Shown here piece after piece: positions 4,213 to 18,238 of a stretch of 36,801 nt of DNA. The DNA is from Planctomycetota bacterium. GTDB taxonomy: Bacteria; Planctomycetota; Phycisphaerae; Tepidisphaerales; Tepidisphaeraceae. The translations under genes and the position numbers were made by a program. Position 1 is the first letter of the stretch; each line of letters opens with the position of its first letter. The notes under the pieces are model-generated. The model did no database searches. It saw only the letters and a list, made by a program, of their open reading frames with translations, and was not told where the DNA came from. Where the stretch lies: assembly GCA_039182125.1 (NCBI GenBank), contig JBCDCH010000039.1:1-36801 (forward strand), written 5' to 3'.

Positions 4213-4228
4213 GTATCGGACCTCGCGG

Positions 4229-4299
4229 CCGACCCACGCCTGAAGGCGTGGGCTTTTGGTATGCGTCGCCAAAGCCCACGGCTTCAGCCGTGGGTCGGC
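4229..4299. repeat. REP pair 1 (two inverted REP hairpins)
   Basis: Two REP-like units face each other. Unit 1 has stem CCCACGCC/GGCGTGGG with loop TGAA at 4233-4252. Unit 2 has CCCACGGC/GCCGTGGG with loop TTCA at 4275-4294. Each stem is flanked by GCCGA on one side and CTTTTGG or CTTTGG on the other, so unit 2 is unit 1 inverted. Unit 2 contains the stop codon of the transposase. Unit 1 could also act as the dnaB terminator. Confidence 0.85.
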
Positions 4300-4853
4300 A
4301 ATGCCGCTGGATCGTGCAACAACGTCCGATCAGGCAAACACAGAATCCCCGCTGCACCACGCTTCGTGTGATCCATGATGTACGGCACAACGGCCAGTTG
4401 ATGCTCCCGATTCTCAATCGGCTTGCACAAACCCCGCTTGGCAAACACACCGCCCTGCCGCGTGATCCCGATCCTCGACAGATGACGCGCTGTTCGCCCT
4501 TTCGCTCGACCGATCCAATGTCGCGGATTGTCGTCGACGCATTTCACCAGCGCGTGCAGGTGATGGTCGTCGAGCGTCAAACAAACCCAAGCTTGGCCAT
4601 CGGCACACAGTGAGCGAGCGATCAACCGGCAGGCGACCAACGCCGCCGAGCTCGGCACATGGACTGGGGCTCGCGACATCGATCGCCGGACCGCCGCACG
4701 GCGATGGTCGAACGCGTTGGCTGGTGGAGGGTGCTTGTAGTCGAACGGAATATGTTCGCGATGGTGCCGTGTGCGAAAACCAAAAGCGGAACCGTGGAGC
4801 CACGTGCCATAGGTACTGGCAGTGACGTGGTACCAGTGGTTCCAAGCGGGCAC
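4284..4853 (-). CDS. REP-associated Y1/HUH transposase (RAYT)
   Basis: A 189-aa single-strand DNA transposase of the IS200-like Y1 superfamily, the type that mobilises REP hairpins. Seen: an N-terminal WYHVTASTYGTWLHGS motif typical of this group, an HUH-type metal site in DDHHLHALV, and a candidate nucleophile Tyr in VPYIMDHTKRG. GTG at 4853 gives an N-terminus that aligns with the usual start. The C-terminus ends in ALPTHG inside REP unit 2, so the element may have replaced the native tail. The gene is flanked on both sides by REP pairs, the classic arrangement. It lies opposite to its neighbours. Known: RAYTs are usually single copy and act on REPs in trans. Whether this one is active cannot be judged. 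Confidence 0.85.
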   Translation of the reverse strand: MPAWNHWYHVTASTYGTWLHGSAFGFRTRHHREHIPFDYKHPPPANAFDHRRAAVRRSMSRAPVHVPSSAALVACRLIARSLCADGQAWVCLTLDDHHLHALVKCVDDNPRHWIGRAKGRTARHLSRIGITRQGGVFAKRGLCKPIENREHQLAVVPYIMDHTKRGAAGILCLPDRTLLHDPAALPTHG

Positions 4854-4901: not shown

Positions 4902-4978
4902 GAAAGCCCACGCCTTCAGGCGTGGGTCGGCAAGACCGTTCTTCGCTGCCGACCCACGGCTAAAGCCGTGGGCTTTGG
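4902..4978. repeat. REP pair 2 (two inverted REP hairpins)
   Basis: Unit 3 has stem CCCACGCC/GGCGTGGG with loop TTCA at 4907-4926. Unit 4 has CCCACGGC/GCCGTGGG with loop TAAA at 4953-4972. The GCCGA flanks face each other here, the reverse of pair 1. Each pair holds one GCC-type and one GGC-type stem; the two types differ by compensatory base-pair swaps. Confidence 0.85.
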
Positions 4979-15992: not shown

Positions 15993-17135
15993 ATGTCCTA
16001 CACCGTCCTCGCTCGTCGCTACCGATCGCGCACCTTCGACGAAGTCGTCGGGCAGGAGCACGTCGCGCTCACGCTCAAGAAGGCGATCGAGACCGGACGC
16101 GTTGCACACGCCTACCTCTTCTGCGGCACGCGCGGCGTCGGCAAGACCTCCATGGCCCGCATCATGGCCGCCGCGCTTCAGGCCGAAGGTGACGGCCCTG
16201 CGGCGGACTTCGACCCTGAGTCCGAAGCCTCCCAGCGCATCTTCCGCGGCGAGGACCTGGACGTCATCGAGATCGACGCCGCCAGCAACACCGGCGTCGA
16301 CAACGTCCGCGAGATCATCGAGAACGCCCAGTACCGGCCGGCACACTCGCGGTTCAAGGTCTACATCATCGACGAGGTCCACATGCTCTCCAAGGCGGCG
16401 TTCAACGCGCTGCTCAAGACGATGGAGGAGCCGCCGGGGCACGTGAAGTTCATCCTCGCGACGACCGAACCCGAGCGTGTGCCGGCGACGATCCTCTCGC
16501 GGGTGCAGCGGTACGACTTCCGGAACATCCCCACAAGCGAGATCGCCGGGCACTTGAAGGACGTGGTCGGATCCGAGAAGCGCGAAGCCGACGACGAGGC
16601 ATTGATGCTCGTCGCGAAAGCCGGCGCCGGGTCGATGCGAGACGCGCTGTCGTTGCTCGATCGGCTGCTCAGCGTGGGCGAAAAGCTCACCGCCGAGCAC
16701 ATCGTGCAGATGCTCGGCATGCCGCGGCAACAAGCGCTGGCCGACCTGACCGACGCGATCGGCACCGGCGAGATCAGCAAGGTGCTGGAGCAGACCGAGG
16801 CGATGCTCGCGGCCGGCCTGTCCGGCGAATCGCTCGTGACCGCGCTATCGGATCACCTGCGCGACCTGCTGCTGATGGGCACGTGCGGCAAGGACACGGA
16901 TCTTGTCGAGCCGGCCGGGCTGGAGCGTTCGACGCTCGCCGAGCAGGCCGAGAAGTTTTCGCCCGCCGACCTCGCCCAGGACATCGCGATCCTCGAAGAC
17001 CTCAAGCGCAGCCTCCGCGGCGGAACGGGGCGGGCGTTGCTCGACGCGACGCTGGTGCGCTTGACGTTGGCGAGCCAGTTCACGCCGGTGAGCGCGTTGA
17101 TGGACGGGTCGGCAAAAAAAAAAGTGAGCGCTTAA
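15993..17135 (+). CDS. dnaX: DNA polymerase III subunit gamma (short dnaX product)
   Basis: Clamp-loader ATPase of the replisome. In the unshifted frame it is 380 aa and ends SAKKKVSA at a TAA (17133-17135). Seen: MSYTVLARRYRSRTFDEVVG start, Walker A GTRGVGKTS near residue 50, DAASNTGVDNVREII, Walker B YIIDEVHMLSKAAFNALLK, and the arginine finger region LATTEPERVPATILSR, then clamp-loader domain III. The usual four-Cys zinc module between Walker A and DAASN is absent: that stretch is short and has no Cys. The gene ends at an A10 tract and the next frame continues the protein, so this is read as the gamma-like product of a programmed frameshift. Confidence 0.93.
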   Translation: MSYTVLARRYRSRTFDEVVGQEHVALTLKKAIETGRVAHAYLFCGTRGVGKTSMARIMAAALQAEGDGPAADFDPESEASQRIFRGEDLDVIEIDAASNTGVDNVREIIENAQYRPAHSRFKVYIIDEVHMLSKAAFNALLKTMEEPPGHVKFILATTEPERVPATILSRVQRYDFRNIPTSEIAGHLKDVVGSEKREADDEALMLVAKAGAGSMRDALSLLDRLLSVGEKLTAEHIVQMLGMPRQQALADLTDAIGTGEISKVLEQTEAMLAAGLSGESLVTALSDHLRDLLLMGTCGKDTDLVEPAGLERSTLAEQAEKFSPADLAQDIAILEDLKRSLRGGTGRALLDATLVRLTLASQFTPVSALMDGSAKKKVSA

Positions 17136-17240
17136 GTCCGTTGAGCGGCGACCGCAGGGAGCTTCCGCCGACGCCCGCGCAAGAGCCAACGCCGTCCGCC
17201 CCGCCGCCCGAAGAGAAGCTCCCTCCGGTCGCCGCTCAAC
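17114..17240 (+). promoter_or_regulatory. dnaX frameshift signal: A10 tract plus long stem-loop
   Basis: Ten A residues (17114-17123) followed by GTGAGCGCT and the in-frame TAA. Sixteen bases after the A tract begins a 25-base arm (17140-17164, starting GTTGAGCGGCGACC). It is complementary at 24 of 25 positions to 17216-17240 (ending GGTCGCCGCTCAAC), with a 51-base loop. Poly(A) slippage or -1 frameshifting near such structures makes gamma and tau in several bacteria. Confidence 0.75.
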
Positions 17241-17641
17241 AGCCGAAACCCGCCGCCCCGCCCGACGACCCCGACGCGCCGCTTCTCCAACGCCTGCGCA
17301 CCAAGCTCGCCCCGACCCACCCCGCGCTACCCGGCCTGCTCGACGGCGCGACGCTAGACCAAACCGACGCCGCGATCACCCTCCGCTACCCGACCGCCGC
17401 CGCGACCAACGCCGCCATGCTCGAACGCGGCGATCGCCCCAAGCTCCTCGCCGACGCCCTGACCGACCTTCTCGGCAAGCCCGCCACACTTGAAATCGCC
17501 GTCGACGAAACCCTCCCGCCGCCCGCGTCTGACCCTGACGACACCCCCGCCCCGTCCGCCACCGACTACGACGCCAGCGATGACGAACTGCTCCAAACCG
17601 TCCTCGACGTCCTCGGCGGCACCATCGTGAAAGTGGAATAA
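17123..17641 (+). CDS. dnaX: Tau-specific C-terminal extension of DnaX (-1 frame)
   Basis: The -1 frame after the A10 tract encodes 172 more residues beginning SERLSPLSGDRREL. There is a Pro/Ala/Glu-rich linker (about 60 residues), then a folded domain with APLLQRLRTKLAPTHPAL, DQTDAAITLRYP, NAAMLERGDRPKLLADAL and an acidic end ELLQTVLDVLGGTIVKVE. This pattern matches the C-terminal region of DnaX tau proteins. Joined to the first frame it gives a protein of about 549 aa, a common tau length. There is no independent start codon with a sensible N-terminus near 17123. The product needs one extra A in the mRNA or a -1 ribosomal shift. Confidence 0.82.
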   Translation, partial: SERLSPLSGDRRELPPTPAQEPTPSAPPPEEKLPPVAAQQPKPAAPPDDPDAPLLQRLRTKLAPTHPALPGLLDGATLDQTDAAITLRYPTAAATNAAMLERGDRPKLLADALTDLLGKPATLEIAVDETLPPPASDPDDTPAPSATDYDASDDELLQTVLDVLGGTIVKVE

Positions 17642-17647: not shown

Positions 17648-18238
17648 GTGCTCTTGCTCATCGACAACTACGACTCGTTCACGTTCAACCTCGTGCACCT
17701 CATCGGCATGGCACAGCCGGGCATTGACGTCGAAGTCGTGCGTAACGACAAGATCACCGTCGAGGCGGCGCGGGCGATGAATCCGGAGTACCTCGTCATC
17801 TCGCCGGGGCCTTGCACGCCGACCGAGGGCGGGGTGAGCAACGACCTCATCGCGGCACTCGGGCCGACGGTCCCGACGCTCGGCGTGTGCCTCGGCCACC
17901 AGTGCATGGCTCACGTCCACGGCGGCATCGTCGAACGCGCCGACCGACTCATGCACGGCAAGACCGACGCCATCCACCACAACGGCTCGGCCCTCTTCAC
18001 CGGCATCCCCTCGCCGTTCACCGCGATGCGTTACCACTCGCTGATCGTCCGTCGCGGCTCGTTGCCCGACGACTGGCTCGTCGACGCGTGGACGGATCAG
18101 GACGAGGTCATGGCCCTGCGGCACGCGACCCACCCAATCTTCGGCGTGCAGTTCCACCCTGAGTCGTTCATGACCGAGCACGGCGACCGGCTGATCAAGA
18201 ACTTCCTCGCGGTCAGCCCGGCTGCGGCCGTTGCCTGA
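17648..18238 (+). CDS. Anthranilate/aminodeoxychorismate synthase glutamine amidotransferase
   Basis: Class I glutamine amidotransferase that releases ammonia from glutamine for anthranilate (TrpG) or 4-amino-4-deoxychorismate (PabA) synthesis; 196 aa. Seen: LLIDNYDSFTFNLVH at the N-terminus, oxyanion motif ISPGPCTP, nucleophile GVCLGHQ (C81), and the His/Glu pair FHPES (H170, E172). TrpG and PabA cannot be told apart without their synthase partner; neither trpE nor pabB is present. GTG start six bases after the dnaX tau stop, so likely cotranscribed with dnaX. Its last 26 bases overlap the convergent ACT gene. Confidence 0.93.
   Translation: MLLLIDNYDSFTFNLVHLIGMAQPGIDVEVVRNDKITVEAARAMNPEYLVISPGPCTPTEGGVSNDLIAALGPTVPTLGVCLGHQCMAHVHGGIVERADRLMHGKTDAIHHNGSALFTGIPSPFTAMRYHSLIVRRGSLPDDWLVDAWTDQDEVMALRHATHPIFGVQFHPESFMTEHGDRLIKNFLAVSPAAAVA

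What the first reader, a model, noticed from the sequence alone, without database searches (positions are those of the whole stretch)
17114..17240. dnaX recoding: A10 slippery tract with a 25-bp inverted repeat
The dnaX frame ends in Lys-Lys-Lys-Val-Ser-Ala-stop right after A10. The -1 frame continues with a tau-like linker and C-terminal domain for 172 residues. A 25-base arm starting 16 bases after the tract pairs at 24 of 25 positions with 17216-17240 around a 51-base loop. The same DNA encodes linker residues in the tau frame, so the structure is maintained inside coding sequence. The gap of 16 bases is longer than for classical ribosomal stimulators, so transcriptional slippage (one extra A), as in Thermus, is equally possible.
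Basis: partly seen in the sequence, partly recalled or inferred. Interest (0 to 1): 0.72.

Follow-up and report, generated by a model that had tools for sequence, protein, structure and literature searches.

The report
dnaX slip site with stray palindrome
In this Phycisphaerae-type bacterium the replication gene dnaX carries a run of ten As, the only one in the genome, that most likely makes RNA polymerase slip so that one gene yields two proteins; the large hairpin beside it is a repeated DNA element that happened to land there, not part of the switch.

Summary
In detail: A10 at 17114-17123, 0-frame end at KKKVSA-stop (380 aa), -1 frame open for 172 codons, and a 25/26-paired inverted repeat at 17140-17165/17215-17240. 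The recoding reading holds, but the hairpin is not part of it. Its arm is a dispersed palindromic repeat: 28 arm copies in this genome, none in 60 relatives, also in frame inside a metal P-type ATPase and ValS. The A tract is deeply conserved: 128 of 154 dnaX genes surveyed in the class carry A9 or A10 there, never longer. In this 4.13-Mb genome it is the only A10. Across 133 tracts no downstream structure is conserved. In genes whose 0 frame is tau, both other frames stop within 10 codons in 94 of 114 (9% at control sites). The default product switched between tau and gamma at least 14 times on the tree; in three genomes tau needs -1 or +2 nt, which -1 ribosomal shifting cannot supply. Transcriptional slippage is therefore favoured: A10 and A9 mRNAs give gamma, A11 gives tau (549 aa). 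Two-ORF dnaX with A10 was described by Antonov et al. 2013, so this is a new member of a known kind. Another family of this class shows a real -1 ribosomal cassette.

The parts
15993..17135 (+). dnaX 0 frame, gamma, 380 aa
   Evidence: TIGR02397 390.8 bits (cut-off 250), DNA_pol3_delta2, ATPase lid and domain III; only dnaX in the genome over the cut-off
17114..17123 (+). A10 slippage tract
   Evidence: only A10 in the genome, either strand; A9/A10 in 128 of 154 dnaX genes of the class
17125..17127 (+). TGA reached right after the tract if one A is lost (9-A mRNA): the second short frame, 377 aa
   Evidence: frame table, dA=-1 stops after 1 codon
17133..17135 (+). TAA stop of the 0 frame (gamma)
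17114..17641 (+). tau-specific linker and C-terminal part in the -1 frame, reached with one extra A
   Evidence: open frame; homologous to tau C-termini of relatives, other two frames not
17140..17165 (+). left arm of a dispersed palindromic repeat
   Evidence: 28 arm matches in the genome, 0 with the control pattern, 0 in 60 relatives
17215..17240 (-). right arm of the same repeat, 25 of 26 paired with the left arm

Best explanation
dnaX here is a two-ORF gene decoded by RNA polymerase slippage on A10. Faithful transcripts (A10) and transcripts that lost one A give gamma (380 and 377 aa). Transcripts with one extra A (or two fewer) join the frames and give tau (549 aa with one extra A). The palindrome downstream is a copy of a genome-specific dispersed repeat that inserted in frame into the unstructured tau linker and was tolerated there; it plays no part in the slip. 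Shown here by sequence: the tract, the frames, the tau homology, the conservation and the repeat family. Inferred: that slippage happens, its rate, and that both proteins are made and needed.
For: A10 is unique in the genome; in 15 of 61 genomes the sole A10 lies in dnaX. A9/A10 is kept in 128 of 154 class members although phase and downstream sequence vary. Both non-tau frames stop within 10 codons in 94 of 114 tau-default genes against 9% of control sites: slippage in both directions needs this, -1 shifting needs only one. All 19 gamma-default genes have A10, never A9 (Fisher p = 0.0017, not corrected for relatedness), as expected if tau depends on slipped mRNA. At least 14 switches of the default frame. 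Three gamma-default genes need -1 or +2 nt for tau (L069, L268, L282). No conserved structure (mean z -0.06) or Shine-Dalgarno-like excess (11% against 9%) at A9/A10 sites. The palindrome family and its in-frame copies.
Against: No RNA or protein data. The tract also contains in-frame A AAA AAA, on which bacterial ribosomes can shift -1, giving the same tau. The genome is a 131-contig assembly, so a miscounted A cannot be fully excluded (A11 would make tau the default, but no A11 is seen in 133 tracts). About a sixth of class members lack the tract.
Confidence: 0.8

Rival explanations
1. -1 ribosomal frameshifting on A AAA AAA within the tract, stimulated by the downstream hairpin, makes tau.
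For: The in-frame heptamer is present and the hairpin is very stable. Reversed -1 frameshifting with tau as shifted product appears to exist in the same class (family f4).
Against: The hairpin starts 16 nt after the tract, against 6 nt in the f4 family; it is a dispersed repeat absent from relatives; no SD-like match of 4 nt or more just upstream. Relatives keep A9/A10 without any structure, and f4, which has the ribosomal cassette, lacks the long A run (A7 or GGGAAAA; G028, G037 and G054 have no A10 at all).
Confidence: 0.12
2. Sequencing or assembly error: the chromosome has A11 and tau is the ordinary 0-frame product.
For: Homopolymers are error-prone; most relatives are tau-default.
Against: No A11 or longer in 133 tracts; 18 other gamma-default genes, some shared by sister species (L227/L236/L240) or by neighbouring genera (L268/L282); even then A11 would be a slip site.
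Confidence: 0.05
3. The hairpin is a co-opted regulator: the inserted palindrome tunes ribosome passage, transcription or mRNA decay near the gamma stop.
For: It lies 4 nt after the gamma stop and has kept 25 of 26 pairs.
Against: Other copies, at unrelated places, keep their pairing about as well, so pairing is explained by recent spread; the nascent-RNA hairpin known to stimulate slippage lies 5' of the slip site (PMC5009743).
Confidence: 0.06

Closest known systems
Two-ORF dnaX with A10 (Antonov et al. 2013, PMC3711429)
   Same: Two adjacent ORFs with a -1 transition, recoding needed for tau, A10 at the junction, slippage proposed; nine such genes with ten As were listed.
   Different: Here with a dispersed palindrome in the linker, and seen as one state in a class where tau-default and gamma-default interchange.
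Thermus thermophilus dnaX transcriptional slippage (Larsen et al. 2000, as described in PMC1088944 and PMC5009743)
   Same: Long A run, slip of RNA polymerase, stops in both other frames, tau and gamma from one gene.
   Different: Thermus has A9 and tau as the template-encoded product; here A10 and gamma.
Escherichia coli dnaX -1 ribosomal frameshift
   Same: Same gene and products; A-rich slip site.
   Different: E. coli has A AAA AAG, an upstream SD-like element and a close stem, and gamma is the shifted product; neither stimulator is met here.
Protein-coding palindromic repeats of Rickettsia (RPE) and REP-type repeats
   Same: Dispersed stem-loop DNA repeats, some inserted in frame in unrelated proteins.
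   Different: Different sequence and host; mobility partner unknown here; common origin not tested.

Membership tests
dnaX transcriptional slippage (Thermus type, including the two-ORF form) | Homopolymeric A run of 9 or more in the sense strand after domain III | tested here: met
   A10 at 17114-17123
dnaX transcriptional slippage (Thermus type, including the two-ORF form) | Exactly one downstream frame is tau, the other two stop at once | tested here: met
   Stops after 1 and 3 codons, third frame 172 codons
dnaX transcriptional slippage (Thermus type, including the two-ORF form) | Tract conserved against sequence drift | tested here: met
   128 of 154 class members A9/A10
dnaX transcriptional slippage (Thermus type, including the two-ORF form) | mRNAs of heterogeneous A-run length; tau and gamma both present | not testable with these tools
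   needs cDNA and protein data
-1 programmed ribosomal frameshift (E. coli dnaX type) | In-frame X XXY YYZ heptamer | tested here: met
   A AAA AAA at 17114-17120 and 17117-17123
-1 programmed ribosomal frameshift (E. coli dnaX type) | Stem starting about 5-9 nt after the heptamer, conserved in relatives | tested here: not met
   16 nt; no structure conserved in relatives
-1 programmed ribosomal frameshift (E. coli dnaX type) | Upstream Shine-Dalgarno-like stimulator | tested here: not met
   No AGGAGG match of 4 nt or more in the 18 nt upstream (sequence); class-wide 11% against 9% control
Dispersed palindromic repeat family | Many copies of the stem-loop in the genome | tested here: met
   28 arm matches, 0 control
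Dispersed palindromic repeat family | In-frame copies in unrelated proteins (RPE-like) | tested here: met
   P-type ATPase and ValS
REP with RAYT transposase | Cognate RAYT moving this repeat | not tested
   Two Y1_Tnp genes exist in the genome but no link to this repeat was sought

The most novel reading that the evidence does not exclude
In the Phycisphaerae, slippage at a fixed A9/A10 makes the template reading frame of dnaX selectively almost irrelevant: tau-default, gamma-default (+1) and gamma-default (-1) genes interchange freely, while another family of the class uses a complete -1 ribosomal cassette instead. The class is then a natural series for how one recoding mechanism is exchanged for another.
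Probability: 0.5. Interest if true: 0.6.

Novelty: new member of a known kind. Interest (0 to 1): 0.45.

Why it matters
The wider survey shows an essential replication gene whose default product has flipped many times, with slippage and ribosomal frameshifting as alternatives inside one bacterial class, which makes the question of how recoding mechanisms replace each other testable.

Tried and rejected
Rfam gave only sub-threshold miRNA noise on the hairpin. Pfam and NCBIfam have no model for the tau-specific part, so homology was tested against relatives instead. Conserved structure up- or downstream of A9/A10: none. SD-like element at A9/A10 sites: no excess. Searches of the literature for dnaX slippage in Planctomycetes or Phycisphaerae found nothing specific. 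The phylogeny is one gene by the quick method with many open forks; the counts of switches are minima on that tree.

Full report
What is there. dnaX starts at 15993. Its 0 frame runs through the AAA+ domain, lid and domain III and ends ...GSA-KKK-VSA-TAA at 17135, 380 aa. It is the only dnaX over the family cut-off in the genome. A10 lies at 17114-17123. The -1 frame is open to 17641. One extra A, or one -1 ribosomal step, gives 549 aa. The -1 frame matches tau C-termini of relatives (best E 3e-14) and the other two frames match nothing.

The tract is real and selected. In 4.13 Mb, A10 occurs once on either strand, here; A8 occurs at only three other places. Of 61 genomes searched, 15 have exactly one A10 and it lies in dnaX (positions). 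In a survey of dnaX from 157 loci of the class (three truncated before the tract), 92 have A10, 36 have A9, none has more, 26 have neither. A10 or A9 also appears in dnaX of Aporhodopirellula, a Pirellulales MAG, a Planctomycetaceae MAG and two Opitutaceae.

The hairpin is something else. The arms 17140-17165 and 17215-17240 pair at 25 of 26. The arm pattern TTGAGCGGCGACCNNNGGGAGCTT has 28 matches in this genome and none in 60 relatives; reversed control patterns give none. Most copies are head-to-head hairpins with a loop of about 10-20 nt; the dnaX copy has a longer loop. Two further copies lie in frame inside conserved proteins: a heavy-metal P-type ATPase (...TDVSLSGDRRELSAEAPFGRRSTEDLL...) and valyl-tRNA synthetase (...ALSGDQRELPPEAPFGRRSTNQL...), with the same first-arm reading as dnaX (PLSGDRREL...) (the ValS name is from the synthetase domains and the motif seen by eye). 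Several contigs end in the repeat, so there are probably more copies. The stability of this hairpin is therefore explained by the repeat, and pairing 'inside coding sequence' is not evidence of maintenance for recoding.

Slippage or ribosome. In 133 distinct A9/A10 dnaX genes, folding energy just downstream equals that of shuffles (mean z -0.06, n = 132); in the longer window this genome is the lowest of all. There is no SD-like excess. In the 114 genes whose 0 frame is tau, both other frames stop within 10 codons in 94 (9% of control sites in the same genes). A -1 shift alone needs only one of them. Nineteen genes are gamma-default: 16 need one extra base for tau, 3 need one fewer or two more (L069, L268, L282), which -1 shifting cannot provide. 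All 19 have A10; among tau-default genes 77 have A10 and 37 A9 (p = 0.0017 without correction for relatedness). On the DnaX tree the default frame changes at least 14 times, 16 with three states. Some gamma-default states are shared by neighbouring species or genera, so they are not all assembly errors. The simplest reading is transcriptional slippage producing all three frames.

A useful contrast. Family f4 (G028 and relatives) has no A9/A10 in the dnaX genes examined. Its dnaX is also gamma-default, in most members with an in-frame A AAA AAA or G GGA AAA, one codon, a stop, and a stem that begins about six nt after the heptamer: 8/8 pairing arms are found at that offset in 12 of 35 against 0-4 at other offsets, mean z -1.81 against 0.04 for a control. 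SD-like matches lie upstream in 57% against 6% of controls. This is what a ribosomal cassette looks like in this class, and the window does not look like it. Reversed roles with tau as the shifted product have been proposed for a few bacteria (PMC5009743).

Known or new. Two-ORF dnaX genes with A10 and proposed slippage were reported by Antonov et al. (PMC3711429), and Atkins et al. note that one nucleotide can reverse the roles (PMC5009743). The window is a new member of that kind. What I did not find in the held literature is the class-wide pattern, the repeat inside dnaX, or the f4 cassette; the library is partial.

Limits. Nothing here measures RNA or protein. Slippage rate, the tau:gamma ratio and the need for both proteins are inferred from other bacteria.

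Noticed in passing
L312-L341 (family f4), also L111-L114, L117: dnaX with what looks like a complete -1 ribosomal frameshift cassette (in-frame AAAAAAA or GGGAAAA, stop one codon later, stem 6 nt downstream, SD-like upstream) in which tau is the shifted product.
   Followed up: partly
window 17140-17240; L087 and L090 around 1501-1560: Genome-specific palindromic repeat inserted in frame in dnaX, a heavy-metal P-type ATPase and valS, resembling the protein-coding palindromes of Rickettsia.
   Followed up: partly
window 16170-16250: DnaX of this genome lacks the four-cysteine zinc module of domain I; so does its sister L047, and 20 of 176 aligned class members in all.
   Followed up: partly
window 4228-4299 and 4903-4976, ORF 4284-4853 minus: Two palindromes of a second repeat (GCCCACGGCTTCAGCCGTGGG, 87 matches in the genome, none with the control) flank a 189-aa ORF with an HHLHAL motif; it may be a REP-associated transposase, but Pfam and PDB gave no match.
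   Followed up: partly
window 17648-18238: dnaX is followed by a glutamine amidotransferase of the trpG/pabA kind (by eye from the translation), whereas several class relatives have a ybaB- or recR-like gene after dnaX.
   Followed up: no
L069, L268, L282: Gamma-default dnaX genes with A10 in which tau needs a loss of one or a gain of two nt.
   Followed up: partly
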